Shown piece after piece: positions 378 to 64,000 of a stretch of 64,000 nucleotides of DNA. Origin of the DNA: Bacteroidota bacterium (GTDB taxonomy: Bacteria > Bacteroidota > Bacteroidia > Chitinophagales > Chitinophagaceae); the NCBI GenBank assembly GCA_026391435.1, contig JAPLEJ010000008.1, positions 1 to 64,000 on the forward strand, in the 5' to 3' direction. Each line of letters begins with the position of its first letter. Position 1 is the first letter of the stretch. The notes below the pieces were generated by a model, which worked only from the letters and a program-made list of their open reading frames with translations, ran no database searches and had not been told where the DNA came from. Position numbers and translations under genes: made by a program.

Positions 378-2717
378 ATGAAAAAATACATGAGTTTTGG
401 GGCTATTGTTTTAGTTGTTATTGGACTAATATATGGCATCACTTATCTTGCCAATGGGAAAAAAGGCAATCGTTCCAAAGCAGTTTCTTATAACAGAGAC
501 ATTCGTCCCATATTATCAGATAAATGTTTTGCTTGTCATGGTCCTGATGTAAACAAAGTAAAAGCAGGTTTAAGATTGGATATTCCTTCAAGGGCTTTTG
601 CTGAACTAGAAAAAAACAAAGGACATTACGCTATTGTACCTGGTTTTCCTGAAAAGAGTGAACTCATCACCAGAATTGAATCTATAGATCCTAAAATAAT
701 GATGCCGCTTCCAGAAAGCCACCTTACTAGATTATCAAAGGATGAAATTGCATTATTTAAAAGATGGATTCAGGAAGGAGCAAAATATGAAAAGCATTGG
801 GCTTTTGTAGCGCCTAAAAAAGCACCTTTACCAGAAGTGGATCATACCAAATGGGTACGCAATGAAATAGATCATTTCATTTTGGAAAAAATGGAAGACA
901 AAGGATTTAGTCCAAATGATGAGGCTTCACGTGATGCATTAATAAAAAGAGCTTACGCCGATGTGACTGGATTACCTCCTAGTTATGAAGCATTAAATGA
1001 ATGGAGAAAATCGACCGATGAAAATTGGTATACAAAATTGCTTGATCAATTATTACAAAAGCCAGCTTACGGTGAAAAGATGGGAATTTTGTGGTTAGAC
1101 TTAGCAAGGTATTCCGATTCTTATGGTTTTCAGGATGATAATATTCGCTCCCAATGGCCTTGGAGAGATTGGGTGATTAATTCATTTAATAAGAATATGC
1201 CTTACAATGAATTTTTAACCAATCAAATTGCAGGCGACTTAATGCCTAATGCAACAAAAGCAAATATTTTAGCAACTGCCTTTTTTAGAAATCATAAATA
1301 CACCGAAGAAGGTGGTATCATTGAAGAAGAATATCGCGTATCCTACAATATCGACAAAACGAGAACTTATGGTAAAGCGATTCTTGGTGTAACCATTGAG
1401 TGCGCTCAATGCCATGATCATAAATACGATCCATTTTCAAATAAAGATTATTATCAACTTTACGCGTTTTTTAATGAGAGTAAGGAAAAAGGGTTTGAAG
1501 GAGATGTAGGTCAATCTACGATGGCAAAAAATCCTAAATTATTTATTAGTAAAGAAGAGCGAAATAATTTATTGACTTTTGTGAATGGAGTAGATACAGG
1601 TATGATTGAAGTATCGGTGATGGGAGATTGGAAACAAGGAGATACGGTGAAACCAAGACCTACTTATATTTTAAGCCGTGGAAGTTATGATGCACCTACC
1701 AATATTCTAGTAAAGCCTACCGGGTTGGAATCCATCATGCCTTATGATACTTTACAATATCCAGCAAATCGTTTGGGCTTAGCACAATGGACCACCAATA
1801 AAAAAAATCCATTAACTGCACGTGTGTTTGTCAACTTTATTTGGCAGGATATTTTTGGTAGAGGTCTTGTTAAAACATCAGGCGACTTTGGATTACAAGG
1901 TGAGCTTCCTTCACACCCAGAATTATTAGATTGGTTGGCTGTTGATTTTATGGAGCACCAATGGGATATAAAATATTTAGTCAAAAAAATATTAAGTAGT
2001 AATACCTACAAACAATCTAATATTATTAGCACAAAGCAACACGAACAAGATCCTGATAATTTATATTACTCAAGATCGCCTCGCATTCGTTTTAAAGCAG
2101 AAATAGTACGTGATTTAATTTTAAGTACAAGTGGTTTATTAAATACCACCATTGGTGGACCAAGTGTAAAACCCTATCAACCTAAGGGTGTATGGGAAAC
2201 TTCAACATCAGGTCGTGGTGTGTTAGCAACCTATAAACAAGATCATGGTAAAGATATTTATCGTCGAGGCTTATATACATTTATTAAATTGACTGCCCCG
2301 CCACCAAGTATGATGATTTTTGATGCAAGTAACAGAGATCAATGCGAAGCAAAACGATCAAGCACTAATACTCCATTACAAGCATTGACCATGCTTAATG
2401 ATCCAACTATTTTAGAAGCTTCAAGGGTGTTGGCCGAAAATATTTCATTAAATAAAAAATCATTGGAGGAAAAAGTAGAGCAAGCGTTTGAATCGATTGT
2501 AATACGAAAACCTTCCAAATTTGAGCGTCAAAAATTAATAGACTACTGTGAAAAGCAAGTTGCTTTTTTTAATACAAACCCATCTGTTGTAAAAGCAACT
2601 TTAGCTGTAGGCGAATTTGAACATCCGAAGCAAAACTATAATTCATCTGAAGCCGCGGCTTTAATGAAGACTATATTAATCATGTATAATTTAGAAGAAA
2701 CCATAACAAAATCATAA
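378..2717 (+). CDS. Module 1 PSCyt1-DUF1549-DUF1553 haem protein
   Basis: This 779-residue protein begins with a membrane anchor or signal (about residues 7-25), followed by a planctomycete-type cytochrome domain with C50-F-A-C53-H54. The DUF1549 domain follows and carries a second haem motif, C342-A-Q-C345-H346, and then DUF1553 fills the C-terminal half (NPLTARVFVNFIW and the NTPLQALTMLNDP signature). The join between the two large domains is short here, without the inserted binding domain of the paralogues at 12661 and 62024. I chose ATG 378 over in-frame TTG 369 because MKK followed by a hydrophobic stretch is a normal export signal. The DUF1501 partner starts 6 bases after the stop. The family has no firmly assigned reaction; extracytoplasmic oxidation of a sugar or polymer is inference. 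Confidence 0.9.
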   Translation: MKKYMSFGAIVLVVIGLIYGITYLANGKKGNRSKAVSYNRDIRPILSDKCFACHGPDVNKVKAGLRLDIPSRAFAELEKNKGHYAIVPGFPEKSELITRIESIDPKIMMPLPESHLTRLSKDEIALFKRWIQEGAKYEKHWAFVAPKKAPLPEVDHTKWVRNEIDHFILEKMEDKGFSPNDEASRDALIKRAYADVTGLPPSYEALNEWRKSTDENWYTKLLDQLLQKPAYGEKMGILWLDLARYSDSYGFQDDNIRSQWPWRDWVINSFNKNMPYNEFLTNQIAGDLMPNATKANILATAFFRNHKYTEEGGIIEEEYRVSYNIDKTRTYGKAILGVTIECAQCHDHKYDPFSNKDYYQLYAFFNESKEKGFEGDVGQSTMAKNPKLFISKEERNNLLTFVNGVDTGMIEVSVMGDWKQGDTVKPRPTYILSRGSYDAPTNILVKPTGLESIMPYDTLQYPANRLGLAQWTTNKKNPLTARVFVNFIWQDIFGRGLVKTSGDFGLQGELPSHPELLDWLAVDFMEHQWDIKYLVKKILSSNTYKQSNIISTKQHEQDPDNLYYSRSPRIRFKAEIVRDLILSTSGLLNTTIGGPSVKPYQPKGVWETSTSGRGVLATYKQDHGKDIYRRGLYTFIKLTAPPPSMMIFDASNRDQCEAKRSSTNTPLQALTMLNDPTILEASRVLAENISLNKKSLEEKVEQAFESIVIRKPSKFERQKLIDYCEKQVAFFNTNPSVVKATLAVGEFEHPKQNYNSSEAAALMKTILIMYNLEETITKS

Positions 2718-2723
2718 ATATTT

Positions 2724-4169
2724 ATGAACGAATTTTTAGAACATGGCTTGAACCAAAACAGGCGTAAATTTTTATCTAAACTAAGTTTAGGTATCGGTGG
2801 CCTTGCCTTGGGTTCCTTAGTGGCCCCTGGATTATTTAATGCAGCAAACGAGGACGATCTTTTTGCAAATGTGTTACCTCATTTTGCCCCTAAGGCAAAA
2901 CGTATTATATACTTGTTTCAAAACGGAGCCCCTTCGCAATTGGACTTGTTTGATTACAAGCCATTGTTACAAAAAATGCACGGGTCCGAGTTGCCAGCAA
3001 GTATTCGTATGGGTCAACGCTTAACAGGCATGACAGCCAATCAAGCAAAATTTCCATTAGCAGGGACTAAGTTTAATTTTTCTCAACATGGAAGCAGTGG
3101 TGCTTGGTTTAGTGAAACACTTCCGCACTTGGCGACCATGGCCGATGATATGTGTATTGTAAAAACAATTTATACCGAAGCCATTAACCACGATCCGGCA
3201 CTTACCTTTTTTCAAACAGGTTCGCAAGTAGGTAATCGACCAAGTATGGGTTCTTGGATAAGTTATGGTCTAGGAAGTGAAAATAAAAACCTGCCTGCTT
3301 TTTGTGTTTTGTTAAGTAAAGGAAAAGGAAATGGACAAGGGGTATATTCAAAATTATGGAACAATGGCTTTTTAGATTCTATTCACCAAGGGGTACAATT
3401 TAGTAGTGGAGAAGAGCCTGTAAAATATTTAACAGATCCAGAATTTATTAAGCGTGGCGATAAGCGAGCGATATTAGATGAAATCGCCGCTTTAAACCAA
3501 GAGTCATATAAAGAAATTGGTGATCCGGAAATTGTGACCAAAATTCAGCAATATGAATTATCCTATCGCATGCAAATGGCCGTTCCAGAAATTACTTCTT
3601 TACAAAATGAGCCAGAGTCTATTGTTAAAATGTACGGACCAGAGTGTTTAGTGCCTGGCACTTATGCGGCCAATTGCTTATTGGCAAGGAAGTTGTCCGA
3701 AAACGGAGTACGATTTGTACAATTATACCATCAAGGTTGGGATACACACGGAAATTTACCTTCAGAATTAGAAGGACAATGTAAAGATGTAGATCAATCC
3801 TCTGCGGCATTAATTAAAGATTTAAAACAAAGAGGTTTGTTAGATGAAACTTTAGTGATATGGGGCGGTGAATTTGGAAGAACCAATTATTGTCAAGGTG
3901 CATTAACAAAAGATAACTACGGAAGAGATCATCATCCAAAATGCTTTACCATTTGGATGGCGGGTGGTGGTGTAAAACCAGGTGTACATGGCGAAACAGA
4001 TGATTTCGGTTATAATATTAATTCATTACCTGTGCATGTGCATGACTTTCATGCAACCGTCATGCACTTGATGGGTATTCGTCATGAGGAATTTACTTAT
4101 AAACATTTAGGAAGGAGATATCGATTAACCGATGTATCTGGAAATGTGATAAATGATTTAATTAGTTAA
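2724..4169 (+). CDS. Module 1 DUF1501 protein, Tat-exported
   Basis: The 481-residue protein has a twin-arginine signal (R13-R14-K-F-L) followed by a Gly/Ala/Leu-rich segment, so export in folded form, perhaps with a cofactor or metal, is expected. The body matches DUF1501, a sulfatase/alkaline-phosphatase-fold family, with the conserved C-terminal block WGGEFGRT, GRDHHP, AGGGVKPG and GETDDFG. DUF1501 genes are routinely paired with DUF1549/DUF1553 genes, as here (6 bases upstream), and the DUF2231 cytochrome gene follows after 2 bases, so the three are almost certainly one transcript. The enzymatic activity of DUF1501 is not established; the His/Asp-rich block suggests metal binding. Confidence 0.9.
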   Translation: MNEFLEHGLNQNRRKFLSKLSLGIGGLALGSLVAPGLFNAANEDDLFANVLPHFAPKAKRIIYLFQNGAPSQLDLFDYKPLLQKMHGSELPASIRMGQRLTGMTANQAKFPLAGTKFNFSQHGSSGAWFSETLPHLATMADDMCIVKTIYTEAINHDPALTFFQTGSQVGNRPSMGSWISYGLGSENKNLPAFCVLLSKGKGNGQGVYSKLWNNGFLDSIHQGVQFSSGEEPVKYLTDPEFIKRGDKRAILDEIAALNQESYKEIGDPEIVTKIQQYELSYRMQMAVPEITSLQNEPESIVKMYGPECLVPGTYAANCLLARKLSENGVRFVQLYHQGWDTHGNLPSELEGQCKDVDQSSAALIKDLKQRGLLDETLVIWGGEFGRTNYCQGALTKDNYGRDHHPKCFTIWMAGGGVKPGVHGETDDFGYNINSLPVHVHDFHATVMHLMGIRHEEFTYKHLGRRYRLTDVSGNVINDLIS

Positions 4170-4171: not shown

Positions 4172-6331
4172 ATGAGGTTAAATAAATTGAGTGCTTATAC
4201 ACTTAACGCACTGTGGCTATTAAATCCATTTTTATTATTGATTGCCCTATTTAATGAAAAATTAAAATTAGGCATCTACCTTGAGTGGTTGGGTAAAATG
4301 CATCCGTTGTTTTTACATTTTCCTATCGTCTTAGGGACCCTCATTGGTATATATTTTATAGTAGATAAAAAAAATAGTATCGATGAGAAAAACGTACATG
4401 CCATTTTGGTAGGTAACGCTTTTTTATCAAGTATGGTAGCCATTCTCGGTATTTTTTTATCTAAACAAGATAGTTATGATGAGCAATTGATTTTTTTACA
4501 CCAATGGGGCGGTGTTGCCATTGCATTCATTAGTTGGGGATTGATTTATTTACAAAAAAGTCAAATCTTTAAAAATAAATACAACTATAGAGTCCAATTC
4601 TCAATGGTGTATCTATTGGTGATTATCATTTTTACACATAAGGGGGCGCAACTTACCCATGGGGCTAATGTCATCAACTTCCCTCAAAAAGAAGTGGCTA
4701 ATGAATTACAAGCAGTCAAAGTAGTCACCGATTCAAATGCTACTTTATATGTGAAAGCAGTAGAGCCTATTTTACAACAAAAATGTGTGGGCTGTCATGG
4801 CGCTGATAAAGTGAAAGGGGAATTATTATTAAACACACCTGCTAATATTCTTAAGGGTGGAAAGGATGGTAATATACTTTCCTTTGATAAGGATAAGGAA
4901 TCAATGCTATTTGAGCGTATTCATTTAGACATCACGCATAAAAAACACATGCCTCCAGAAGGTAAAACTCAATTGACTACAGAAGAGGTAGCTATATTAA
5001 GTAGATGGATTAAGGCAGGTGGTGATTTTAAAGTTAAAATGAGAGAACTAGCTAAAACGGACAGCTTATTTTTATTCGCAAATAAGTATACACCGGTTGA
5101 TAATACTAAGGTAATTGGCAAAACTGGATTACCAGATTTAAAAGAATATAATTCAAGTTATTGTACAGTCAATTATTTATTCAATGGTAGTGATGCCATT
5201 GATGTTAATTTTTTTCAACGTAATTTTTATAGTCAAGCGGTATTGAAAAAATTAGAAAATGTAAAAGATCAAATTATTAGACTGAATATGCAAAGTATGC
5301 CTTTGACATCGGAAGATATCAATATCATAAGTCAATTTAATAATGTAGAAAATATAAACTTAAATTATACATCACTTGATCTAAAAGCAATTGAACCATT
5401 AAAACAACTAAAAAAATTAAAATATTTATCCATTTGTGGTATCAAATTTAGCGAAGCTGAATTAAATTCCTTTTTAAAAGGCGCTACCTTCTCTAAAATA
5501 AATGTATGGTCCAATGTGAATAATCAAGCACAATTAGAAAAATTAGCTGCCCAGTATCCTAAGATTAAATTTACAATTGGAGATAATTTAGAAAATGAAT
5601 TATTTAAAATTAATGTACCTACTATTGATCAAGACTCTTCGATCATCACTCGTTTTTTAGATGTTAAAATAAAACATTTATTAAACGGAGTCACTATACG
5701 CTATACAACGGATGGCGCCGATCCAGATAGCGCCACTAGTCCTGTTTATAAAAACACATTACGCTTAACTAGAAACACTAATTTAAAAGTAAAAGTATTT
5801 AAGCCAGGTTGGCTCAGTAGCGATATTGTTCAGCGTAATTTTTATAAGTCCGAGATTCATCCTGATTCTATTTACCTAGTATCTTCTCCGGATAAAAAAT
5901 ACCTTGGAGATGGTGCTAAAACATTGGTAGATCTTGAATTAGGCGGCTCTAATTTCACTAATAAAAAATGGTTGGGTTATAAGGACACTACTATGAAATT
6001 TATAGTTGATTTTAAACAACCTCAACTATTACATCAAGCATTTTTAAATAGTTTAATAGATGTAGGCGGTTATGTATTCCCGATTGTTTCTATCGCAGTG
6101 GAAGGAAGTGATGATGGTGTAAAATATAAAAAAATAAGTGAAACTAAATTCCCTACCATTACTCAAAAAGATGTGATGAGGGATATCAAAACATTTACTT
6201 ATATATTTCCTAATAATACCACATATAAGCATTATCGATTTACAGTTCTGAATTTAAAAAAATTACCTGTATGGCATCCTGGAAAGGGAACGCCTGCTTG
6301 GATTTTTATTGATGAACTATTTTTAAATTAA
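4172..6331 (+). CDS. Module 1 DUF2231-cytochrome c-Fn3_assoc membrane fusion protein
   Basis: The 719-residue protein is a multidomain fusion. Residues about 13-160 hold several membrane helices with histidines shared with its paralogues (HPLFLHFPI, HQWGG, THKGAQLTHG), matching DUF2231. A c-type haem domain follows (C205-V-G-C208-H209, likely distal Met in KKHMPPEG near residue 260). A degenerate leucine-rich region spans about 360-450. A chitobiase-C-terminal/Fn3_assoc type beta domain (IRYTTDGADPDSATSPVY) is near 510-560, and a C-terminal beta region resembles discoidin folds. The paralogues at 16940 and 60624 end after the leucine-rich repeats, so the last two domains are specific to this module. 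The likely role is a membrane electron acceptor with a glycan-binding outer part (inference). It ends just before a bidirectional terminator. Confidence 0.85.
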   Translation: MRLNKLSAYTLNALWLLNPFLLLIALFNEKLKLGIYLEWLGKMHPLFLHFPIVLGTLIGIYFIVDKKNSIDEKNVHAILVGNAFLSSMVAILGIFLSKQDSYDEQLIFLHQWGGVAIAFISWGLIYLQKSQIFKNKYNYRVQFSMVYLLVIIIFTHKGAQLTHGANVINFPQKEVANELQAVKVVTDSNATLYVKAVEPILQQKCVGCHGADKVKGELLLNTPANILKGGKDGNILSFDKDKESMLFERIHLDITHKKHMPPEGKTQLTTEEVAILSRWIKAGGDFKVKMRELAKTDSLFLFANKYTPVDNTKVIGKTGLPDLKEYNSSYCTVNYLFNGSDAIDVNFFQRNFYSQAVLKKLENVKDQIIRLNMQSMPLTSEDINIISQFNNVENINLNYTSLDLKAIEPLKQLKKLKYLSICGIKFSEAELNSFLKGATFSKINVWSNVNNQAQLEKLAAQYPKIKFTIGDNLENELFKINVPTIDQDSSIITRFLDVKIKHLLNGVTIRYTTDGADPDSATSPVYKNTLRLTRNTNLKVKVFKPGWLSSDIVQRNFYKSEIHPDSIYLVSSPDKKYLGDGAKTLVDLELGGSNFTNKKWLGYKDTTMKFIVDFKQPQLLHQAFLNSLIDVGGYVFPIVSIAVEGSDDGVKYKKISETKFPTITQKDVMRDIKTFTYIFPNNTTYKHYRFTVLNLKKLPVWHPGKGTPAWIFIDELFLN

Positions 6332-6346: not shown

Positions 6347-6383
6347 AAAAAAAAGCGTCCCAATTTTCGGGACGCTTTTTTTT
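6347..6383. terminator. Bidirectional rho-independent terminator
   Basis: A perfect 7-bp GC-rich stem (6355-6361 with 6369-6375) around a 7-nt loop is flanked by eight A on the left and eight T on the right. It can terminate both module 1 and the minus-strand glycosidase gene whose stop codon overlaps the T tract. Confidence 0.93.
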
Positions 6384-8550
6384 ATTCAATGACAAACCAG
6401 TTATAAGTATCAGGCGGAATGGTAAAAGTAAAATTGACAGTATAGTCTCTATTTAAAGAGTATTGAGTAACAACACCTTTAGAATCGGTAATTTTTGCTT
6501 TATTAGAAAGCCCTGTATAATATAATGGAAGTTGAATGGTTTTAGTCATGACCTCATGCGTAGGATTAAACAACATCATGAATCCTTTTTGTGAGGTTGC
6601 AGGATTCACATGCATCCAACCATCCCAATCGCGACCATCAGCACGACGCAATTGAATCATATCTGCATTTAATATAGATCTGTATTTTTTATACCATTGT
6701 ATGGTTTTTGATACTAATGCTTTGGTGGTTTCAGTATCATACAATCGAGGGCCTCTATAACAAGCTTGTACTCCAGCACCATAGTACTGCATCATCAGTT
6801 GTTCATAATCATTTAAATGTTCGCTGAGTGGCTCAAGCACTGCATCTTCGGTGCCTCCTTGGTATTTTGTCAATGGAACAAAACCCCAGGCCATTGAAGG
6901 AATTTTTTCCAAAGTACCATCATGGATATTTTGGCGATTCAATAATTTTTGTTGTTCTCTAGACAAAGAAAAATTGACCTCGCGATATCCTAATGCAATT
7001 TTATTAGTGCCGTCTAAAAAATACCAATCCGGTGCGTTAATGTAAACACCACTTTCATTGAGCCAATGGTATAATTCTTTTTGAATTTCCATTTGTCTCC
7101 ATTGAGAATCATCATAGCCTTTATGGCCTGGGTGTGTAGTAGAAGCACAAACATCGCCTGGATAGGGTCCATCATTCTCCCAAATATCAAAGCCAGTGGA
7201 TTTAAAAAAGTATTTTATTTTATCTCGATATGCTAATCCCCATTTACTTCCAAAACAAGGAGCGTTACCAAAAAATGCACCACCTGGCTTACCTGTTTTA
7301 ATATCTACTACATCATCCTCATCGCTAATGCGTCGACTACTAAATAAAGAGTATCCACCTAACAAAATATGATGTTGGTGTGCGTAATCGGTTAACGCTT
7401 TCCATTTTTTAATATTAGAAGCCGAGCTGTCTTCCATTTCTAAATGACTACCAAAACTTAAAATCACTGCTTCATATCCAGTGGCAACACATTGGTCAAT
7501 CGCGTTTTTAACTTCCTGGTCATTCCTGCTCACTAAATGCATAAAAATGGGATTTTGCGTGGTCCAAGGAGCAATAGTACGGTACATCTTTTTTAACATG
7601 AGTCCTCGTCTTTGCCTATCATAACTATCCATTAATAATTCATTCGTGCGAACGGATTTGAAATTTTCATTTGGCGCTAAATCAATACCAGGAGCCTTTT
7701 CCGGGTATATCTCTAATAAACAAGGTGTTTCATAATTATAATTTACCTGAGAAGTATAAGCAAGATCGGTTTTCCAATGAGTGGTTTGATCACTAATATC
7801 ATAGCGCATGGCGTTGTTAAAAGCATAATTTGTTTCAACATAGATTCCATGTTGTTTTTTCATTTCCTCTGGCTTTCCTACTACGGCACTTTCCTCTTCT
7901 ACCAGCCCAAGTACTTCATTCACCACTCTATTTATTTTGATGGATTTATTGGATGCATTATCAATAGATATCCATTTCGTAATTAAAGGAATGCCATCAT
8001 ATAATTCATAATGCACTTTAATAATAATATTTTTAAGTGCGGCTAAAGGAGATACGAATTCAAATACAATACTTGCACCAGTAGGTTGTTGACCATTAGT
8101 GAGCCAGGTAGTGGGCTTCCAATGTATAAAGGGTTCGATAGTAGAAATACTATGGCGAACATATACAAAATCAGAATCGTTTTTTTGAAGCCCTTTGATG
8201 CTCGCTAATTTTAAGTACGCTTTTTCTCTTTGTCCAGATAAGCCACCCACTTTGTAACTCACTTGATCCAAAATTACTTTGGCTTCTGGTTCAATACTAC
8301 GAATAAGCTGTTGCCCATTACTTAAATTAGTATAATCAAAGCAAGCCACATTAGGTGAAATGATAAAAACCCTTTTTACAAGTCCATTATTCATTACAAT
8401 ATTTTGACCCTCGACGGTAATTTTTGCTTTCTGAGCAATGGGGCTTATCAACCAATCTGCAATGGGTGACTTGCTGACTACTCCCTTAGTTGATTGTGCA
8501 TGAGCATAAGTAGATAAAAGAACTAAAAAATATACAATTGTTTTTTTCAT
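6382..8550 (-). CDS. Secreted glycoside hydrolase, clan-D (GH27/GH36-like)
   Basis: The 722-residue protein has a clear signal peptide (MKKTIVYFLVLL ending in AHAQ). The N-terminal third is beta-rich. The central part looks like a TIM barrel with FDIWENDGPYPGD near residue 457, reminiscent of the acidic strand-end motifs of alpha-galactosidase-type clan-D enzymes. The C-terminal part resembles a small beta domain, with YYTGLSNKAKI and a last strand ending in NWFVIE. I recognise the family only loosely, and substrate (galactoside, N-acetylgalactosaminide or other) is not determinable. It is the third gene of a minus-strand run after gamma-glutamyltransferase and a CBM9-like protein, 87 bases from the latter. 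Confidence 0.6.
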   Translation of the reverse strand: MKKTIVYFLVLLSTYAHAQSTKGVVSKSPIADWLISPIAQKAKITVEGQNIVMNNGLVKRVFIISPNVACFDYTNLSNGQQLIRSIEPEAKVILDQVSYKVGGLSGQREKAYLKLASIKGLQKNDSDFVYVRHSISTIEPFIHWKPTTWLTNGQQPTGASIVFEFVSPLAALKNIIIKVHYELYDGIPLITKWISIDNASNKSIKINRVVNEVLGLVEEESAVVGKPEEMKKQHGIYVETNYAFNNAMRYDISDQTTHWKTDLAYTSQVNYNYETPCLLEIYPEKAPGIDLAPNENFKSVRTNELLMDSYDRQRRGLMLKKMYRTIAPWTTQNPIFMHLVSRNDQEVKNAIDQCVATGYEAVILSFGSHLEMEDSSASNIKKWKALTDYAHQHHILLGGYSLFSSRRISDEDDVVDIKTGKPGGAFFGNAPCFGSKWGLAYRDKIKYFFKSTGFDIWENDGPYPGDVCASTTHPGHKGYDDSQWRQMEIQKELYHWLNESGVYINAPDWYFLDGTNKIALGYREVNFSLSREQQKLLNRQNIHDGTLEKIPSMAWGFVPLTKYQGGTEDAVLEPLSEHLNDYEQLMMQYYGAGVQACYRGPRLYDTETTKALVSKTIQWYKKYRSILNADMIQLRRADGRDWDGWMHVNPATSQKGFMMLFNPTHEVMTKTIQLPLYYTGLSNKAKITDSKGVVTQYSLNRDYTVNFTFTIPPDTYNWFVIE

Positions 8551-12660: not shown

Positions 12661-15417
12661 ATGCTTTTAAACAGATTTCCTAAAAGGTACCTTGTATTAT
12701 CCCTCTTTGTAATGAGTGCTTTTTGCGTTTCTGTCTATTTTATAAAAGACAAAAAGGTTGATTTTAACACCGAGGTTAAACCATTATTAAACAAAAAATG
12801 TATTACCTGCCATGGAGGTGTAAAAAGGCAAAGTGGTTTTAGTTTATTATTTAGACAGGATGCGCTCGCTATTAATAAATCGGGAAAGGCAGCCATCTTA
12901 CCTGGCGATGCAGAACATAGTGAAATGATTAGGCGCCTCACACTAAAGGACCCCGAGGAACGCATGCCTTATAAACATCCTCCTTTAAATAAAGATGAAA
13001 TTGCATTATTAAAAAATTGGATTAATCAAGGAGCGCAATGGGGAAATCACTGGGCCTATGTTTCAGTAGAAGAAACCCCCATCCCCAAAGTGGGCGCTGG
13101 TCCCTTTGGATGGTTTGGTCAACCTAGCTGGATAAAAAATAATATAGATCCTTTTATTTATCAAAAAATAAAACAAGAAGGATTAACACCTTCCGCTATT
13201 GCAGACAAACCTACTTTATTAAGAAGAGTAAGCTTTGATATTATTGGAATGCCTGCAAGTGATGCGATTGCAAAAAAATATTTATCTAATAACAATGAAG
13301 ATGCTTATGAAATTTTAATAAACGATTTATTAGCCAGTAAAGAGTATGGAGAAAAATGGACAAGCATGTGGATGGATATTGCGCGATATGCTGATACCAA
13401 AGGCTTTGAGAAAGATGATTCACGAACCATCTGGAGATATCGAGATTGGTTAATTGACGCATTTAATAAGGACAAGCCTTACAATGAATTTTTAACCGAA
13501 CAGCTAGCGGGTGATTTATTACCTAATCCATCGGATGCACAATATATCGCTACTGCCTTTCATAGAAATACTTTAACCAATGATGAAGGTGGAACGGATA
13601 ATGAAGAATTTAGAACGGCTGCTGTTATAGATCGCGTTAATACAACATGGGTGACCTTGATGGGAACCACTTTTGCTTGTGTGCAATGTCATAGTCATCC
13701 ATATGATCCTTTTAAGCATGAGGAGTATTATAAATTCATGGCCTTATTTAATAATACAAGTGATGAAGATACTTATGCAGAATATCCATTTTTAAAAGAA
13801 TTCCATCAAAAGGATAGTGTAAGATTAAATCAATTGCAAACCTGGCTTCATCAAAACGCACCTAGTAGAGAAAAAGAAATCATTCGATTTATCAAAACGG
13901 GTCAGCCTGCCTTTAATTCATTAGCAGCTGATCAAATTGTCAATGGCACATTAGAAGGCACTATTTGGTTGTTGTTAAGAAACAATGGTACTGCGCGCTT
14001 AAAAAATATTGACTTTACAGGAAGTAGCTTATTATATTATAAATACAGGAGTTGGAAAGCAGGTGGCAAATTGCAAATTCATTTAGATTCTGCCACTGGG
14101 CCCCTTTTAAAAAATATAAATGTAGAAAATACAAAAGGCAATTGGAAAATTACAACCATTGACCTACCTGCCTCCAATGGCAAGCATCATTGGTATTTTA
14201 CTTATAATAATCGTCAAATAAGTAATCCTGAAGAAAGTGGTATTGTATTTGATTGGTTACATTTTGACAATCCATTTCCTAAAAACGGTTCAGCTGACAA
14301 TGCATTGGCTGCTCAAAATTTTGATTCACTTATAATTGCGACTAATTATACGGGTACGCCCATTATGATTGACAATCCCGCCACCATGTCTCGTACGACG
14401 AATGTATTTGAAAGAGGCAACTGGATGGTAAAAGGAAAAGCAGTCGTACCAGATGTTCCAGCCTCATTAGGAGGCCTGCCTGCTAATGCGCCAAAAAATA
14501 GATTAGGCATGGCCATGTGGTTAACAGATAAAAAAAATCCGCTCACCGCTAGAACAATGGTGAATCGTATTTGGGAACAACTATTTGGACAAGGCATTAC
14601 AGAAACTTTAGAAGATTTTGGAACACAAGGTATTGCTCCCACACATGAAGCTTTATTAAATTACTTAGCATGGCAATTAATGAATACGCATCATTGGAGT
14701 ATTAAAAAAATGATCAAAGAAATAGTGATGAGTGCCACCTATCAACAAGATTCTAAATTTAATAATGAAGCAGCAAGTAAGGACCCTTATAATAAATTAT
14801 ATGCAAGAGGACCAAGGGTAAGATTATCAGCCGAGCAAGTAAGAGATCAGGCATTAAGGGTGAGTGGATTATTAAGTGATAAAATGTTTGGTCCAAGTGT
14901 GATGCCTTATCAGCCGGAAGGAATATGGAAGTCGCCTTATAATGGGGCTACTTGGAATATTAGTACAGAAGGCAATCAATATAGACGCGCATTATATACT
15001 TTTTGGAAAAGATCTGCGCCCTATCCTTCGATGATCAGTTTTGATGGCACAAGTAGGGAAGTATGTTCGGCACGACGCATTCGAACCAACACCCCATTGC
15101 AAGCATTGAATGCATTAAATGATTCGGTATACATTGAAGCAGCGCAACACTTTGCTAAACGCGTTCAATCCTTAGTGCCTCAAAATGCAAGTAAACAAAT
15201 AAGCAAAGCCTATGAATTGGCTTTTAATAAAAACATCACAGAGGCGCAACAAAAGGTATTTGAAAAATTGTATCGTATCTCCTTTGTAAAATACAGTCAA
15301 GATTCATTAAAATCGCAACAAATCACAGGTAATAAAAATGCAGACCCTGGTTCAGCAGCATTGATAATGGTAGCAACAGCATTATTAAATACCGATGAAT
15401 TTTTGACAAAAAATTAA
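12661..15417 (+). CDS. Module 2 PSCyt1-DUF1549-[CBM6-like]-DUF1553 haem protein
   Basis: This 918-residue paralogue of the gene at 378 has an N-terminal hydrophobic anchor (about 9-28), a cytochrome motif C47-I-T-C50-H51, DUF1549 with a second motif C340-V-Q-C343-H344, and C-terminal DUF1553 (NPLTARTMVNRIWEQLFG, TNTPLQALNALND). Between them is an extra region of roughly 150 residues (about 430-550). It has TARLKNIDFTGSSLLYYKY, LQIHLDSATGPLL and VFDWLHFDNPFP, the layout of a CBM6-type beta-sandwich. The insert replaces the LamG-type domain of the paralogue at 62024. The DUF1501 gene starts 5 bases after the stop. Export, two covalently bound haems and glycan binding are inferred from the motifs; the reaction is unknown. 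Confidence 0.9.
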   Translation: MLLNRFPKRYLVLSLFVMSAFCVSVYFIKDKKVDFNTEVKPLLNKKCITCHGGVKRQSGFSLLFRQDALAINKSGKAAILPGDAEHSEMIRRLTLKDPEERMPYKHPPLNKDEIALLKNWINQGAQWGNHWAYVSVEETPIPKVGAGPFGWFGQPSWIKNNIDPFIYQKIKQEGLTPSAIADKPTLLRRVSFDIIGMPASDAIAKKYLSNNNEDAYEILINDLLASKEYGEKWTSMWMDIARYADTKGFEKDDSRTIWRYRDWLIDAFNKDKPYNEFLTEQLAGDLLPNPSDAQYIATAFHRNTLTNDEGGTDNEEFRTAAVIDRVNTTWVTLMGTTFACVQCHSHPYDPFKHEEYYKFMALFNNTSDEDTYAEYPFLKEFHQKDSVRLNQLQTWLHQNAPSREKEIIRFIKTGQPAFNSLAADQIVNGTLEGTIWLLLRNNGTARLKNIDFTGSSLLYYKYRSWKAGGKLQIHLDSATGPLLKNINVENTKGNWKITTIDLPASNGKHHWYFTYNNRQISNPEESGIVFDWLHFDNPFPKNGSADNALAAQNFDSLIIATNYTGTPIMIDNPATMSRTTNVFERGNWMVKGKAVVPDVPASLGGLPANAPKNRLGMAMWLTDKKNPLTARTMVNRIWEQLFGQGITETLEDFGTQGIAPTHEALLNYLAWQLMNTHHWSIKKMIKEIVMSATYQQDSKFNNEAASKDPYNKLYARGPRVRLSAEQVRDQALRVSGLLSDKMFGPSVMPYQPEGIWKSPYNGATWNISTEGNQYRRALYTFWKRSAPYPSMISFDGTSREVCSARRIRTNTPLQALNALNDSVYIEAAQHFAKRVQSLVPQNASKQISKAYELAFNKNITEAQQKVFEKLYRISFVKYSQDSLKSQQITGNKNADPGSAALIMVATALLNTDEFLTKN

Positions 15418-20414: not shown

Positions 20415-20447
20415 AAAATAAATCAAACAATAGAAAAATCATTCATC

Positions 20448-22565: not shown

Positions 22566-22575
22566 ATAATGCTTT

Positions 22576-22890
22576 ATGCAACAGTTGGCATTTGAAATGA
22601 AATTAATGAAAGGCTATGAAGCGGAGTACCAAAAAAGGCATACTGCTATTTGGCCCGAATTAACTGCATTACTAAAGTCCCATGGCGTGAGTGAATATTA
22701 TATTTACTTAAATGAGCAAAGTTTAAGTTTATTTGGAATCATGAAAGTGGAGGACCCTATTCAATTGGATGCATTACCTCATCACCCCATTATGAAAAAG
22801 TGGTGGGCGTATATGAAAGACATTATGGAAACCAATTCAGATTATTCTCCCTTATCTATTTCCTTAAAGAATGTTTTTTACATGCCTTAA
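22576..22890 (+). CDS. rhaM: L-rhamnose mutarotase
   Basis: The 104-residue protein matches the RhaM family (DUF718) in size and motifs: an early KGYEAEYQKRH, then IWPELTALLKSHGVSEYYIYL, and a C-terminal KKWWAYMKDIMETN. It interconverts alpha- and beta-anomers of L-rhamnose to feed the isomerase. It lies 10 bases after the aldolase/dehydrogenase and 11 bases before the isomerase. ATG 22576 sets the family-typical N-terminus; an out-of-frame ATG at 22569 is not used. Confidence 0.95.
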   Translation: MQQLAFEMKLMKGYEAEYQKRHTAIWPELTALLKSHGVSEYYIYLNEQSLSLFGIMKVEDPIQLDALPHHPIMKKWWAYMKDIMETNSDYSPLSISLKNVFYMP

Positions 22891-22901
22891 TCAATTAATT
22901 T

Positions 22902-60623: not shown

Positions 60624-62027
60624 ATGATTGAATTCATTGGTCACTTACATCCTGTTATTGTGCATTTGCCTATTGGTATTTTGTTTATGGGTGTATTCAT
60701 GATGCTATACGAACATTACAGCGGGACCGATTTAAAGACGCCTATTTCTTTGGCTTTTTTATTAGGTAGCATCGGCGCTGTTGTCGCATGTATAGCAGGA
60801 TGGTTATTGTCTAATTCCGGAGAATATGATGCCGCGTTAATCTTTAAGCACCAATGGACAGGCATCGCAACGGCTTTAACTGGAGCCCTTGTATATTTTT
60901 TAAGAGAGTACAAAAAATGGGGTGTGTTAATGCTTATTGTTTTATTAATATTTACAGGTCATTTTGGTGCCACCCTCACACACGGCGAAAATTATTTATG
61001 GGGATCTGATAAAAAAGAGACATTGATTGAACAAGACAGTTTAAAAAAAGAAACGAAAAAAATAACCCAAATTATTACCAACGGGAAAGACTCGATTAAA
61101 ATAGTAAAACATAATAGATACCAAGATGACATTATGCCCATCTTAAAATTGAGATGCTATAATTGTCACTCTGCATTAAAACAAAAAAACTTATTACGAT
61201 TGGATAGTGAAGGTTTTATAAAAAAGGGCGGAAAAACAGGAATGATATTAATGGCGGGTAATATTTTAAAAAGTCCACTTTATACTAATTTAATATTACC
61301 GTTGGAAGATGAAAAACATATGCCACCAAGGGGGAAACATCAATTAAGTGAAAATGAAATAGCCATCATACAAGAATGGATAAAAACAGGAGCGTCTTTT
61401 GAGGATCAAATAGATACGCTATCTATAAAAGAGACCCCCATTAAACTAGCGCCTATTAAAATAATTGTTGCAAAAAAAGTGGATACTGCTGTTCCTGTTA
61501 TTACAAATAAAATAACAGACCTGCAGACGGACAATACAGCAAACATAAGTGTTGCAACGATTGCATCTTTTAAACAACAAAATATTATTTTATCAAACTT
61601 ATCGGAAACCGCACCCTTTATAATGGCTAATTTTGTAAATGTAGTTCCATTTGATAATACTGTGTTATTGGAATTACAAAAAATAGAAAAGCAACTAGTG
61701 ATATTAAAATTAACCAACTTGCCCATTAAAGATAATGATGTTAAAATGTTGATTGATTTGAAAAAAATGAGAAGATTGAATTTAGAAAACACGGCCATTA
61801 CAAATGAATGCTTGCCGTATTTAAAACAATTGCCTGAATTAGAACAACTTAACTTGTATGGAACTAATATTTCGGATGAGGGATTAAAACAATTGGCTTC
61901 TTTTAAAAAATTATCGGTACTTTATTTATGGAAAACAAAGGTAACGGCGACTGGAGTTGATCAATTTAAAAAAGAAAGGCCCGATGTTAAAGTAGAAATA
62001 GGAAATTTTAAATTTCAAAAAAAATGA
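60624..62027 (+). CDS. Module 3 DUF2231-cytochrome c-LRR membrane protein
   Basis: From ATG 60624 the product is 467 residues, the same length as the module 2 homologue. A TTG at 60609 is in frame but ATG aligns better. It has membrane helices with HPVIVHLPIG, KHQWTG and GHFGATLTHGENYL, then a haem motif C178-Y-N-C181-H182 with a distal Met in EKHMPPRG, and leucine-rich repeats (RRLNLENTAIT, EQLNLYGTNIS, SVLYLWKTKVT). Its TGA overlaps the ATG of the next gene (ATGA). Here it precedes the DUF1549 gene, whereas in modules 1 and 2 it comes last. Confidence 0.88.
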   Translation: MIEFIGHLHPVIVHLPIGILFMGVFMMLYEHYSGTDLKTPISLAFLLGSIGAVVACIAGWLLSNSGEYDAALIFKHQWTGIATALTGALVYFLREYKKWGVLMLIVLLIFTGHFGATLTHGENYLWGSDKKETLIEQDSLKKETKKITQIITNGKDSIKIVKHNRYQDDIMPILKLRCYNCHSALKQKNLLRLDSEGFIKKGGKTGMILMAGNILKSPLYTNLILPLEDEKHMPPRGKHQLSENEIAIIQEWIKTGASFEDQIDTLSIKETPIKLAPIKIIVAKKVDTAVPVITNKITDLQTDNTANISVATIASFKQQNIILSNLSETAPFIMANFVNVVPFDNTVLLELQKIEKQLVILKLTNLPIKDNDVKMLIDLKKMRRLNLENTAITNECLPYLKQLPELEQLNLYGTNISDEGLKQLASFKKLSVLYLWKTKVTATGVDQFKKERPDVKVEIGNFKFQKK

Positions 62028-64000
62028 AAAAGTATTATTTATTAATAGGAATGGTCGGATTATTTTTTGCATTCACCACTATGCCCAAACTTCCTGAAGA
62101 TATAAATAAAGAGTACCTAAAATTGCCGTCGGTAATTGACTATAATGAGCATGTAAAACCTATTTTATCAGATAAATGTTTTTCTTGTCATGGCCCCGAT
62201 AAAGCAAAACAAAAAGCAGGACTCAGATTAGATATAGCAGAATCAGCCTATGGACCCTTGCCAGAAAGTCCAGGCAAAGTCGCTATTTATCCGGGCAACA
62301 TTAATAAAAGTGAATTATACTATCGTATCATATCAAAGGATTCATCTTATTTAATGCCGCACCCCAAATCTCATTTAAGTTTAAGTGCAAGAGAAAAAGC
62401 AATTCTAATTAAGTGGATTGAAATGGGTGCTGTATATAAACCTCATTGGGCCTTTGTAGCTCCACAAAAAAAAGCCATCCCCGAAATTTTTAATTATCAA
62501 GTAAATAACCCCATTGATCAATTTGTCATAAGTCGATTACAGCAGGAGGGATTGCAACCTAGCCCCACCGCATCAAGAGAAATTTTATTAAGGCGTGTTT
62601 CCTTGGATTTAACAGGTCTCCCACCCACCATTCAAGAAATAGACGAGTTTTTAAATGATAAAAGTCCCAATGCATATGAAAAACAAGTGGACCGATTATT
62701 AAACTCACCGCATTATGGGGAAAAAATGGCGACGCAGTGGTTGGACTTAGCTCGTTTTGCAGACTCTTATGGCTATACCGTGGATCGAACAAGAGATATG
62801 TCACTGTATAGAGATTGGGTGATAAAAGCTTTTAATGAAAACCTTTCTTACAAAGACTTTATACAATATCAATTAGCGGGCGATTTAATGCCGTCTCCAA
62901 CCAAGGACATGATCATTGCGACGGCATTTAACAGAAATCATCCTCAAAATATGGAAGGTGGTATTATAGAGCAAGAATTTCAAACAGAATATGTCATGGA
63001 TCGAACCAATACATTTGGTGAAGCTTTTTTATCCATTTCGGTAGGATGTGCTAGATGCCATGATCATAAATTTGATCCCGTATCACAGGAAAATTATTAT
63101 CAATTATATAGCTTCTTTAATAATGTTTTGGAGTCGGGTCAAATATCATGGAATGACGATATGCCAACACCTACATTAATGCTACCCACCCAAGAGGAAG
63201 AAAAAACAATACAATATATTAAAGGCTTAATCAAAGAAAAAGAATCACAATTACAGTCCGCATATACCCATTTGGCAACCAACTTTAATGATTGGATACA
63301 ACAAGAAAAATATAAATCCATTCCTAGCAAAGGAATACCTAGTGATCATTTGCAAGGCTATTATACATTTGAAGATTCTTTAAAAAATGAAATCAATAAA
63401 AGTAAAGCAGCCATATTAAGACGCGATTGGGATAATAAAATGGAGCAGCTCGTTTTTGAAAAAAATAACAATGGACAAGCCTTGGTTTTAAATGGAGATA
63501 CTTATTTAGATTTAAAAGAAGTGGGCGTGTTTCGAAATTCAGATCCCTTCACTATTGGACTTTGGTTATACATTCCTAAGGAAATGAAAGAGGGGGTGCT
63601 GTTTCACAAAAGCAATGCGGAGCGATTATATAATTATAAGGGGTATAATGTATACTTAAAAAACAATAAATTAGAAATGACCATGGCGCACACCGCGCCT
63701 TCTAATGCGATTACAAAAGTAGCATTAACTGATGTTCCGCGAAATCAATGGATTCATCTTGCCATGACCTATGACGGATCGTCTACTGCCAAAGGCTTTC
63801 AACTTTTGATCGATGGAAATCCACTCCAAATGGAAACGGTGATAGATCAACTATATAAAGACATTATTTTCTTCTCCAAGGATGAACCCGCATTACAAAT
63901 TGGGGGTTGGTATCGAGGCTTTGGTTTTAAAGGCGGCAAAATCGATGACATTACCGTATACAATAGACTACTGACTCCTTTTGAAATAAAAATATTGGCA
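62024..64000 (+). CDS. Module 3 PSCyt1-DUF1549-LamG protein (3' end outside the window)
   Basis: The frame is open for at least 659 codons to the window edge. An N-terminal signal (about 3-20) precedes a cytochrome motif C52-F-S-C55-H56, DUF1549 with C342-A-R-C345-H346 (spacing identical to the module 1 copy), and a linker. From about residue 476 to the edge is a LamG/concanavalin-like domain (LVLNGDTYLDLKEVGVF, SDPFTIGLWLY, NQWIHLAMTYDG, GKIDDITVYNRLLTPFEI). The DUF1553 part is expected beyond base 64000. Its ATG overlaps the upstream stop by 4 bases, so it is translationally coupled with the DUF2231 cytochrome gene. Confidence 0.9.
   Translation, partial: MKKYYLLIGMVGLFFAFTTMPKLPEDINKEYLKLPSVIDYNEHVKPILSDKCFSCHGPDKAKQKAGLRLDIAESAYGPLPESPGKVAIYPGNINKSELYYRIISKDSSYLMPHPKSHLSLSAREKAILIKWIEMGAVYKPHWAFVAPQKKAIPEIFNYQVNNPIDQFVISRLQQEGLQPSPTASREILLRRVSLDLTGLPPTIQEIDEFLNDKSPNAYEKQVDRLLNSPHYGEKMATQWLDLARFADSYGYTVDRTRDMSLYRDWVIKAFNENLSYKDFIQYQLAGDLMPSPTKDMIIATAFNRNHPQNMEGGIIEQEFQTEYVMDRTNTFGEAFLSISVGCARCHDHKFDPVSQENYYQLYSFFNNVLESGQISWNDDMPTPTLMLPTQEEEKTIQYIKGLIKEKESQLQSAYTHLATNFNDWIQQEKYKSIPSKGIPSDHLQGYYTFEDSLKNEINKSKAAILRRDWDNKMEQLVFEKNNNGQALVLNGDTYLDLKEVGVFRNSDPFTIGLWLYIPKEMKEGVLFHKSNAERLYNYKGYNVYLKNNKLEMTMAHTAPSNAITKVALTDVPRNQWIHLAMTYDGSSTAKGFQLLIDGNPLQMETVIDQLYKDIIFFSKDEPALQIGGWYRGFGFKGGKIDDITVYNRLLTPFEIKILA

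What the first reader, a model, noticed from the sequence alone, without database searches (positions are those of the whole stretch)
378..64000. Three paralogous haem-protein modules of planctomycete type in one Bacteroidota region
DUF1549/DUF1553 plus DUF2231-cytochrome gene sets, with DUF1501 in the two complete copies, occur at 378-6331, 12661-18343 and from 60624. Each adds three CxxCH haem motifs (two in the DUF1549 protein, one in the DUF2231 protein). Spacing of 2-14 bases or overlap indicates single transcripts. All are exported or membrane proteins, and their neighbours are sugar enzymes. Such sets are familiar in Planctomycetes but uncharacterised; three within 64 kb beside deoxy-sugar genes suggests an oxidative glycan-processing system with electron transfer to the membrane.
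Basis: partly seen in the sequence, partly recalled or inferred. Interest (0 to 1): 0.8.

Follow-up and report, generated by a model that had tools for sequence, protein, structure and literature searches.

The report
Exported haem enzymes with membrane partner
Three real but distinct sets of exported haem-protein genes sit near each other in a Chitinophagaceae genome; they look like an uncharacterised family of enzymes that work outside the cytoplasm and pass electrons to the membrane, and they are probably haem-carrying cousins of a second, haem-free family.

Summary
Three gene sets, each with DUF1549/DUF1553 (PSCyt1-PSCyt2-PSD1), DUF1501 and a membrane cytochrome, lie at the stated places; the third is complete beyond the window, and a fourth, fused form is elsewhere in the genome. 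They are not local duplicates: each belongs to its own clade, often with its own exported partner (NHL propeller or TIM barrel). 'Planctomycete type' is half right: the PSCyt2-DUF1501 pair is shared, but the membrane subunit lay beside 44 of 52 Bacteroidota copies and 0 of 21 planctomycete or verrucomicrobial ones. Rhamnose genes adjoin class 2 in 3 of 8 sister islands; fucosidases lie near 5 of 20 class 2 sets. DUF1501 has an alkaline-phosphatase-superfamily fold, no sulfatase signature and an invariant H/D-x-H/E-x-x-R/H set. New here: haem-free DUF1800 is probably a homologue of PSCyt2/PSD1 and also sits beside DUF1501, with the same residues. Likeliest reading: an exported two-protein enzyme whose partner gained haem and, in Bacteroidota, a membrane electron outlet. 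The substrate is unknown; a glycan is plausible, not shown.

The parts
1..330 (+). 3' end (109 aa) of the NHL 6-bladed propeller gene of module 1, cut by the contig start
   Evidence: NHL hit; matches the C-terminus of the 341-aa gene just upstream of the same module in L003, L004, L006, L045
378..2717 (+). Module 1 (class 1): PSCyt1-PSCyt2-PSD1 dihaem protein, 779 aa, CFACH and CAQCH
   Evidence: Pfam; AlphaFold2 pLDDT 90.5, pTM 0.89; class 1 clade
2724..4169 (+). Module 1: DUF1501, 481 aa, RR export signal, alkaline-phosphatase-superfamily fold
   Evidence: Pfam; model; fold matches
4172..6331 (+). Module 1: membrane subunit; 4 helices (DUF2231-like), PSCyt1, LRR, C-terminus like a GH20 hexosaminidase
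6382..8550 (-). Secreted 722-aa protein, convergent neighbour of class 1 sets in this genus (13 of 17 sets in the genus regions mapped); weakly GH36 alpha-galactosidase-like
   Evidence: Gene maps of relatives; PDB profile hit E 0.02; no Pfam hit at 1e-3
12661..15417 (+). Module 2 (class 2): PSCyt1-PSCyt2-PSD1, 918 aa, with a CBM6-like insert just below the Pfam cut-off
15423..16925 (+). Module 2: DUF1501, 500 aa
16940..18343 (+). Module 2: membrane subunit with PSCyt1
18345..19301 (+). Alpha/beta hydrolase, constant neighbour of module 2 in the eight sister islands compared
19359..25492 (+). Rhamnose catabolism genes (RhaT, RhaD-dehydrogenase fusion, rhamnose-isomerase-like, FGGY kinase); neighbour, not constant, probably not part of the module
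   Evidence: Families; present in 3 islands and absent in 5
25563..26771 (-). MFS permease, substrate not identified (NCBIfam FucP 23 bits, cut-off 280), constant neighbour of module 2 in the eight sister islands compared
60624..62027 (+). Module 3: membrane subunit with PSCyt1, first gene of the set (order reversed)
62024..64000 (+). Module 3 (class 3): PSCyt1-PSCyt2-PSD1 with LamG insert, 1071 aa; continues to contig base 65239, followed by DUF1501 (contig 65244-66713), both outside the window

Best explanation
Each set encodes one exported enzyme system. DUF1501 is a Tat-exported protein of the alkaline phosphatase superfamily with an altered, probably metal-binding site (H156, D340-x-H342, E383-x-x-R386, H403). 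It works with an obligate helical partner. In DUF1800 systems that partner has no haem; in PSCyt2/PSD1 it has acquired a c-haem inside the helical body plus an N-terminal PSCyt1 domain. An extracytoplasmic substrate is turned over at the DUF1501/partner pair with an electron-transfer step at the PSCyt2 haem. Electrons leave through PSCyt1 to the PSCyt1 of the membrane subunit, then to the five-His site at the periplasmic face of its four-helix DUF2231-like domain and on to the quinone pool. Class-specific exported proteins (NHL propeller in many class 1 and 3 sets; xylose-isomerase-like TIM barrel in many class 2 sets) act before or after this step. Shown: genes, families, predicted fold of DUF1501, invariant residues, class-specific neighbours, DUF1501 adjacency in both systems. 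Inferred: haem attachment, direction of electron flow, quinone, physical complex, metal, and a sugar or oligosaccharide as substrate.
For: Genome stoichiometry: 4 PSCyt2, 4 DUF1501 and 7 PSCyt1 hits, each inside one of four sets. DUF1501 is the next gene for 53 of 57 Bacteroidota, 9 of 11 Planctomycetota and 10 of 13 Verrucomicrobiota PSCyt2 genes. Natural fusion of DUF2231+PSCyt1 to PSCyt2/PSD1 in class 4. Both CxxCH in 148 of 148 PSCyt2/PSD1 rows; in 105 membrane-subunit rows H44 and H49 in 103 (2 gaps), H110 and H156 in 105, H163 in 104, haem His209 and Met260 in 105. The His lie at the starts of helices 1 and 3 and the end of helix 4. PSCyt1 resembles FoxE (E 2.4e-8; Z 9.8) and hydrazine synthase alpha (E 1.8e-6; Z 7.2). 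DUF1501 fold: Z 19.0 to an NPP-type phosphodiesterase and 18.0 to wild-type PafA. H156, D340, H342, R386, H403 in 126 of 126 module DUF1501 rows and 40 of 40 DUF1800 partners; E383 in 126 of 126 and 39 of 40. DUF1800-PSCyt2/PSD1 similarity. The genome encodes cytochrome c assembly and TatC proteins.
Against: No biochemical test of any member was seen in the papers listed or read. Many PVC copies have no membrane subunit nearby and would need another acceptor. The haem could be structural, regulatory or sensory. DUF1501 may be non-catalytic: the position after its first strand, where the superfamily usually has an Asp ligand (recalled), reads N/A/S. The extra exported gene is missing in 5 of 20, 5 of 20 and 5 of 10 regions of classes 1, 2 and 3. 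The 12 class 4 rows lack H348 beside the PSCyt2 haem. The DUF1800 link is weak in one direction (7 DUF1800 among the top 50 non-PSCyt2 hits), and the PSCyt2 part alone aligned best to the wrong end of DUF1800.
Confidence: 0.5

Rival explanations
1. One reading: a deoxy-sugar (fucose/rhamnose) glycan oxidation system, at least for class 2, serving the neighbouring glycan genes.
For: Module 2 is followed by rhamnose genes; a GH95, a sulfatase and a sialidase-like gene lie in the window. Fucosidase genes (PF01120 and/or GH95 type) lie 1-3 genes from the module in 5 of 20 class 2 regions (L087, L089, L091, L096, L097), against 2 of 20 class 1, 0 of 10 class 3, 1 of 8 class 4 and 2 of 44 other Bacteroidota class 1 regions. 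CBM6-like and LamG inserts and a GH20-like C-terminus occur in module proteins. Published glycan suggestion.
Against: 15 of 20 class 2 regions have no such gene. The fucosidase comparison was made after the fact, is only P 0.02-0.08, and flanks were at most about 10 kb. Rhamnose genes are present in 3 and absent in 5 sister islands. The constant MFS permease is not recognised as FucP.
Confidence: 0.2
2. DUF1501 with its helical partner is an extracytoplasmic hydrolase or transferase acting on an envelope or extracellular polymer, and the haems only gate or sense redox state or oxygen; no net substrate oxidation.
For: The same DUF1501 residues are kept with haem-free DUF1800. DUF1501-DUF1800 pairs are co-located with chitin synthase and a sugar epimerase in several bacteria including Dickeya and Pectobacterium (PMC5122149, passages). 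The superfamily members matched are mostly phosphoryl or sulfuryl transfer enzymes.
Against: Both haem sites are invariant in 148 of 148 rows, and Bacteroidota add a third c-haem and a His-rich membrane domain, which suits electron flow better than sensing. Class 4 fuses the membrane domain to the enzyme.
Confidence: 0.22
3. PSCyt2/PSD1 is a peroxidase- or MauG-like dihaem enzyme that modifies another protein (maturation of DUF1501 or of the propeller) instead of acting on a small substrate.
For: Two haems, one in a cytochrome-like domain and one in an enzyme body, next to a co-encoded protein partner.
Against: Haem-free DUF1800 pairs with a DUF1501 that keeps the same residues.
Confidence: 0.08

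Closest known systems
'Planctomycete-specific' cytochrome/PSD proteins (PSCyt1, PSCyt2, PSD1; Rhodopirellula PMC2754498, freshwater Verrucomicrobia PMC5615132; passages seen)
   Same: Same domains, DUF1501 as the usual next gene in the PVC loci fetched here, CBM-type inserts
   Different: Bacteroidota sets mostly add a membrane DUF2231-PSCyt1 subunit beside the pair, and often a class-specific exported gene
DUF1800-DUF1501 pairs (PF08811/PF07394; reported beside bacterial chitin synthases, PMC5122149, passages seen)
   Same: DUF1501 partner with the same invariant residues; DUF1800 profile resembles PSCyt2/PSD1 above controls
   Different: No CxxCH in 42 of 42 DUF1800 proteins; the loci held only about 1.5 kb of flank, so other partners were not examined
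Alkaline phosphatase superfamily (NPP, PafA, S1 sulfatases)
   Same: Predicted fold of DUF1501; Z about 17-19
   Different: No [CS]xPxR signature in 126 of 126 rows; the sulfatase D-N pair reads E-F
FoxE and hydrazine synthase alpha cytochrome domains
   Same: Best sequence and structure matches of the PSCyt1 domain
   Different: The match covers model residues 34-141 only, not the PSCyt2/PSD1 body

Membership tests
PSCyt1-PSCyt2-PSD1 (planctomycete-type cytochrome) family | PSCyt1, PSCyt2 and PSD1 domains over the Pfam cut-offs in one protein | tested here: met
   Copies 1 and 2 and the C52 copy; copy 3 has PSCyt1 and PSCyt2 in the window, its C-terminal part lies beyond and was only aligned
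PSCyt1-PSCyt2-PSD1 (planctomycete-type cytochrome) family | Two CxxCH sites per protein | tested here: met
   148 of 148 rows over 690 aa (146 distinct): 147 with two, one fused row with three
PSCyt1-PSCyt2-PSD1 (planctomycete-type cytochrome) family | DUF1501 as adjacent gene | tested here: met
   4 of 4 in this genome; 53/57, 9/11 and 10/13 in three phyla
PSCyt1-PSCyt2-PSD1 (planctomycete-type cytochrome) family | Haem covalently bound and redox active | not testable with these tools
   Only motifs, and the presence of cytochrome c assembly genes
DUF2231 membrane protein | Pfam DUF2231 over cut-off | tested here: inconclusive
   Not at E 1e-3 in the three window proteins; met in the fused homologue; the His positions align across 105 rows
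S1 sulfatase | C/S-x-P-x-R signature for the formylglycine nucleophile (motif recalled) | tested here: not met
   0 of 126 module DUF1501 rows, 122 distinct
S1 sulfatase | D-N pair after the TIIIFSSDNG strand (metal role recalled) | tested here: not met
   Profile alignment with 11 sulfatases puts E383-F384 there; E in 126 of 126, F in 125 of 126
Alkaline phosphatase superfamily | Superfamily fold | tested here: met
   Foldseek 166 matches at E<=0.001, TM-scores about 0.3-0.4; VIA Z 19.0, rmsd 3.8 over 245 residues; predicted model only
DUF1800 superfamily (homology of PSCyt2/PSD1) | Profile similarity above controls | tested here: met
   hhalign score 46.5, E 1.9e-4, probability 48%; controls 18.3-23.0; C-terminal half 40.1 against 12.4-21.2 in 20 column shuffles; DUF1800 profile ranking
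DUF1800 superfamily (homology of PSCyt2/PSD1) | Whole-length collinear similarity or shared fold | tested here: inconclusive
   The full alignment is collinear over 431 columns with large gaps, but the PSCyt2 part alone matched DUF1800 positions 547-619, out of order (score 32.7); no DUF1800 structure was predicted
MauG / dihaem peroxidase | Dihaem peroxidase fold | tested here: inconclusive
   The fold searches of the whole 779-residue model do not decide it

The most novel reading that the evidence does not exclude
PSCyt2/PSD1 and DUF1800 form one superfamily of obligate partners of DUF1501, so that a single widespread extracytoplasmic enzyme core, with a partner fold possibly not yet seen in the PDB and an unusual alkaline-phosphatase-superfamily site, exists in a haem-free and a haem-carrying form. 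The haem form couples to the respiratory chain through a new type of membrane subunit with a periplasmic five-His site. Class-specific lyase- or isomerase-like proteins (the NHL propeller shares similarity with the amidating-lyase part of PAM) would complete an oxidation-then-cleavage reaction.
Probability: 0.3. Interest if true: 0.82.

Novelty: new variant of a known kind. Interest (0 to 1): 0.57.

Why it matters
These domains occur in dozens of copies in planctomycetes (41 of each in R. baltica, PMC2754498, passage) and in 53 of 147 sampled genomes of this family, and are still called unknown in the papers seen. The link to DUF1800, the invariant DUF1501 residues and the membrane subunit turn a vague 'redox' label into testable predictions: which residues to mutate, which proteins to co-express, where electrons should go. 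A culturable Bacteroidota host with a few copies is an easier test bed than a planctomycete with 41.

Tried and rejected
Local duplication of one module: rejected, separate clades. Rhamnose-specific function: weakened by sister islands. Fucose link of class 2: found on re-checking, weak, kept as a rival and its odds raised from 0.15 to 0.2, with the hydrolase rival lowered to 0.22. S1 sulfatase: signature absent. Known fold for the PSCyt2/PSD1 body: Foldseek gave 0 of 65 matches at E<=0.001; VIA rows other than the PSCyt1 matches, FoxE and hydrazine synthase, had Z 4.8 or lower, and no peroxidase or MauG entry was among the rows shown. This proves nothing, since a 779-residue model can hide single-domain matches. 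DUF1800 against PSCyt2/PSD1 with 9 DUF1800 sequences gave probability 5%, with 42 sequences 48%. PDB relatives of the class 2 TIM barrel: none at E 0.1, and no NCBIfam family at 0.01. The 722-aa neighbour: only a weak alpha-galactosidase hit, E 0.02. PAL-like propeller: similarity to PAM exists (E 2.8e-10), but TRIM-NHL proteins score better, so no enzyme claim is made from it. MFS permease as FucP: not borne out. Membrane subunit as Bacteroidota-only: rejected, 7 of 20 PVC/Acidobacteriota genomes hold one homologue. Supplementary files of He et al. were not read.

Bias: the 80 named loci are the best 80 of 571 confirmed candidates for copy 1, themselves from a capped list, so PVC diversity is undersampled. 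The 60 family regions and 40 genus regions were picked by me, favouring long contigs. In one search, 11 near-duplicate loci were left out, neighbour counts are for whole regions of up to about 22 kb, and contigs that end early lower them. Rows repeat: 146 of 148 PSCyt2/PSD1, 122 of 126 DUF1501 and 102 of 105 membrane rows are distinct. Two long membrane-type rows (778 and 817 aa) were left out. In one search, 5 Bacteroidota, 2 Planctomycetota and 1 Verrucomicrobiota gene with fewer than three downstream genes were dropped from the 52/9/12 denominators; none of the eight had the subunit in view. Rows are related, so its P value is not used. The tree is a FastTree with local support, and it warns of long branches and uneven composition. 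Signal peptides were judged by eye and by an RR count, not by a predictor.

Full report
WHAT IS THERE. The window is the first 64 kb of contig C29 (160 kb) of a 1.91-Mb, 84% complete genome. Its family is Chitinophagaceae: family genome G055 has a contig of exactly the length of the named Chitinophagaceae chromosome CP128386 and an identical copy of the gene, and the closest named relative of copy 1 is a Chitinophagaceae MAG (79% identity). Set 1 is 378-6331, set 2 is 12661-18343, and set 3 starts at 60624 and ends outside the window. Pfam confirms PSCyt1, PSCyt2/DUF1549, PSD1/DUF1553, DUF1501 and a third, PSCyt1-bearing membrane protein. Set 3 is complete, with its DUF1501 at contig 65244-66713. 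Set 1 also has a cut NHL-propeller gene at 1-330. A fourth set on contig C52 has the DUF2231 membrane domain and PSCyt1 fused to PSCyt2/PSD1 in one 832-aa protein, with DUF1501 next to it. The 4 DUF1501 and 7 PSCyt1 hits in the genome are all in these sets.

FOUR CLASSES, NOT THREE DUPLICATES. In the family, 53 of 147 sampled genomes have PSCyt2, and in the genus 62 of 101. Open-frame lengths fall mostly near 780, 925, 1075 and 830 aa. A tree of 151 proteins (FastTree, local support) places these as separate clades: class 2 (22 rows, 100), class 4 (12 rows, 100), class 3 (11 rows, 93) and class 1 (67 rows, 100). Class 2 joins planctomycete, acidobacterial and verrucomicrobial rows (96); classes 1 and 3 lie in a wider Bacteroidota group (83). 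Window copy 1 groups with L003, L004 and L006, copy 2 with a same-genus genome (L102), and copy 3 with L108. The three copies are therefore distinct classes. In other species of the genus, class 1 and class 2 lie 12-15 kb apart on one contig (G243, G224, G213, G197, G208, G221), and G243 repeats the whole 1-2-3 arrangement. The linkage is inherited.

CLASS-SPECIFIC NEIGHBOURS. Many regions carry one more gene with an N-terminal RR-type signal. In the family regions fetched, an NHL propeller of 341-385 aa is present in 15 of 20 class 1 and 5 of 10 class 3 regions, and a TIM barrel of about 310 aa (AP_endonuc_2, just under the Pfam cut-off) in 15 of 20 class 2 regions; where both could be read they mostly lie between DUF1501 and the membrane subunit. 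In 44 further Bacteroidota regions of class 1 the propeller is in 14. Neither is among the 14 commonest neighbours of class 4 in 8 regions. In the window, set 2 lacks the TIM barrel. Eight islands of set 2 could be compared (G221 is cut off and not counted). Three have rhamnose genes and no TIM barrel (window, G243, G253); five have the TIM barrel and no rhamnose genes in the fetched stretch (G224, G213, G197, G208, G175). An alpha/beta hydrolase and an MFS permease are present in all eight. So the rhamnose genes are not a fixed partner. A fucosidase (PF01120 and/or GH95 type) lies in 5 of 20 class 2 regions, 2 of 20 class 1, 0 of 10 class 3, 1 of 8 class 4 and 2 of 44 other class 1 regions: a weak sign, found after the fact, that class 2 may serve fucose-containing glycans (Fisher P 0.023 against all others, 0.084 against the family regions).

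'PLANCTOMYCETE TYPE'. The PSCyt2-DUF1501 pair is shared: DUF1501 is the next gene in 53 of 57 Bacteroidota, 9 of 11 Planctomycetota and 10 of 13 Verrucomicrobiota genes. The membrane subunit is not. It lies within six genes of 44 of 57 Bacteroidota copies (44 of 52 with at least three downstream genes), but of 0 of 11 Planctomycetota (0 of 9) and 0 of 13 Verrucomicrobiota copies (0 of 12). A search of whole genomes with the membrane domain alone found one homologue in 7 of 20 PVC/Acidobacteriota genomes and 1-4 in 6 of 6 Bacteroidota genomes, among them four Bacteroidota genomes whose sampled set had none beside it. The three-gene set is thus best called the Bacteroidota form, within this sample.

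THE HAEM PATH. Both CxxCH sites are present in 148 of 148 PSCyt2/PSD1 rows over 690 aa. The N-terminal PSCyt1 resembles the FoxE and hydrazine synthase alpha cytochrome domains by sequence and structure (Z 9.8 and 7.2). In 105 membrane-subunit rows, fused ones included, the haem His209 and Met260 are invariant, and His 44, 49, 110, 156 and 163 are kept in 103-105. Hydropathy gives four helices in copy 1 (near 46-64, 78-96, 107-125, 141-161; less clear in copy 3), with the five His at the starts of helices 1 and 3 and the end of helix 4. By alternation these ends lie on one face, the same face as the following PSCyt1 domain, hence the periplasmic one (inference). A b-haem or a metal site there is the natural reading; neither is shown. 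The class 1 membrane protein also has LRR-like repeats and a C-terminus like GH20 hexosaminidase 6q63 (E 7.9e-44).

DUF1501. The model (pLDDT 84.2, pTM 0.84) has the alkaline-phosphatase-superfamily fold: 166 Foldseek matches at E<=0.001, Z 19.0 to a snake venom phosphodiesterase, 18.0 to wild-type PafA and about 17-18 to sulfatases. The profile also aligns with an alignment of 11 sulfatases led by the window's own (probability 95%). Yet there is no [CS]xPxR signature in 126 of 126 rows, and the sulfatase D-N pair reads E-F. Invariant instead are H156, D340, H342, E383, R386 and H403 (126 of 126 each). An RR pair lies in the first 40 residues of 121 of 126 rows, and the genome has TatC.

THE PSCyt2/PSD1 BODY AND DUF1800. 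The model of copy 1 is confident (pLDDT 90.5, pTM 0.89), but Foldseek gives no PDB match at E<=0.001, with the caveat that a model of this length can hide single-domain matches. DUF1800 was tested as a possible relative because DUF1800 and DUF1501 genes are known to share an operon (PMC5122149, passages). Of 42 DUF1800 proteins fetched here, none has CxxCH, and 41 have a DUF1501 homologue in the about 1.5 kb of flank (25 in the first profile round, 41 after one iteration). Profile-profile comparison gives score 46.5, E 1.9e-4, probability 48% over 431 columns in order but with large gaps. Controls are lower: the reversed DUF1800 alignment 23.0, DUF1501 20.9, sulfatases 18.3. For the C-terminal half alone the real score is 40.1 against 12.4-21.2 for 20 column shuffles. 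Against a full-length reading, the PSCyt2 part alone scored 32.7 but to the C-terminal end of DUF1800, out of order (all). The DUF1800 profile run against 2,537 proteins puts PSCyt2/PSD1 proteins in 48 of the top 50 places outside the DUF1800 set (47 with a strong PSCyt2/PSD1 score and one fused class 4 protein; one of the other two is a DUF1800 fragment confirmed by Pfam). The 177 strong PSCyt2/PSD1 proteins of 600 aa or more have median 3.9 and maximum 16.1 bits; 289 unrelated proteins of that length have median -2.8 and maximum 3.1, and 93 membrane-subunit-type ones median -2.8 and maximum 5.9. In the reverse direction the signal is weak: 7 DUF1800 among the top 50. The DUF1501 partners of DUF1800 keep the same residues (H156, D340, H342, R386, H403 in 40 of 40, E383 in 39 of 40). 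I conclude that the two helical partners are probably homologous, most clearly in the PSD1 part, and that the chemistry at DUF1501 is probably common to both systems, with haem a later addition (inference).

LITERATURE. He et al. 2017 (PMC5615132, passages) describe PSCyt/PSD genes in Verrucomicrobia, note that PSCyt2 and PSCyt3 genes are usually next to families of unknown genes, that some carry CBM-type domains and that sulfatase genes are often near, and suggest a role in carbohydrate metabolism with functions unknown. PMC2754498 (passages) gives 41 copies of each domain in R. baltica and a suggested redox function. PMC4452313 (passages) cites earlier work on DUF1501 clusters in PVC bacteria. 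PMC5122149 (passages) reports DUF1501-DUF1800 pairs with chitin synthases. PMC11495043, PMC3597751 and PMC7563939 (passages) only mention the domains. Searches for DUF1501, DUF1549, DUF1553, PSCyt, DUF1800 and DUF2231 showed no title or abstract that reports biochemistry of a member, and no passage read says that DUF1800 and PSCyt2/PSD1 are related. One search listed 40 of 772 papers, mostly on yeast Psd1; other listed papers that mention DUF1501 once to three times were not opened; subscription papers and supplements were not available.

VERDICT. The reading as a rhamnose/fucose system is not established, with a weak fucosidase signal for class 2 only. A haem-linked extracytoplasmic enzyme with an electron outlet to the membrane is the best model, with unknown substrate. 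The most useful new results are the membrane subunit's distribution and His pattern, the class-specific neighbours, and the probable kinship with haem-free DUF1800.

Noticed in passing
window 52177-57066: A ThuA - glucose/sorbosone dehydrogenase - PKD - cytochrome c fusion (1,146 aa as listed, one CxxCH seen) ends 3 bases before a sulfatase gene: another exported redox protein beside a glycan enzyme, also present in G243 (L157).
   Followed up: partly
window 29409-33452: DUF1080 (3-keto-disaccharide hydrolase) gene, Gfo/Idh/MocA oxidoreductase and a two-domain DUF1080 gene in a row: a candidate 3-keto-sugar pathway, also seen in the class 2 islands of G243, G253 and G208.
   Followed up: partly
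L155-L171 (genus islands), window 16925-19301: Rhamnose genes and the class 2 TIM barrel exclude each other in the eight islands compared (3 with rhamnose genes, 5 with the TIM barrel).
   Followed up: partly
L087, L089, L091, L096, L097: Fucosidase genes (PF01120 or GH95 type) lie 1-3 genes from class 2 sets in 5 of 20 family regions.
   Followed up: partly
L120 (8682), L122 (1134): A fifth, long-branched PSCyt2 class (965 and 1045 aa); in L122 a propeller resembling Mal s 1-like proteins lies between DUF1501 and the membrane subunit.
   Followed up: no
L141 3-572: A DUF1800 fragment (Pfam) lies about 9 kb from a class 1 set in a same-genus genome (G087), so haem and haem-free systems can be near neighbours.
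   Followed up: partly
L002 17093-18786: A glucose/sorbosone-dehydrogenase-type protein followed by a small cytochrome c lies about 7 kb from the fourth set.
   Followed up: partly
window 46888-49803: A 971-aa FAD/4Fe-4S fusion resembles D-2-hydroxyglutarate dehydrogenase YdiJ but scores well below that family's cut-off (643 of 1350 bits).
   Followed up: no
window 34461-34603: The two ORFs 33464-34603 and 34461-37148 overlap by 143 bases as listed; the shorter one probably starts further in.
   Followed up: no
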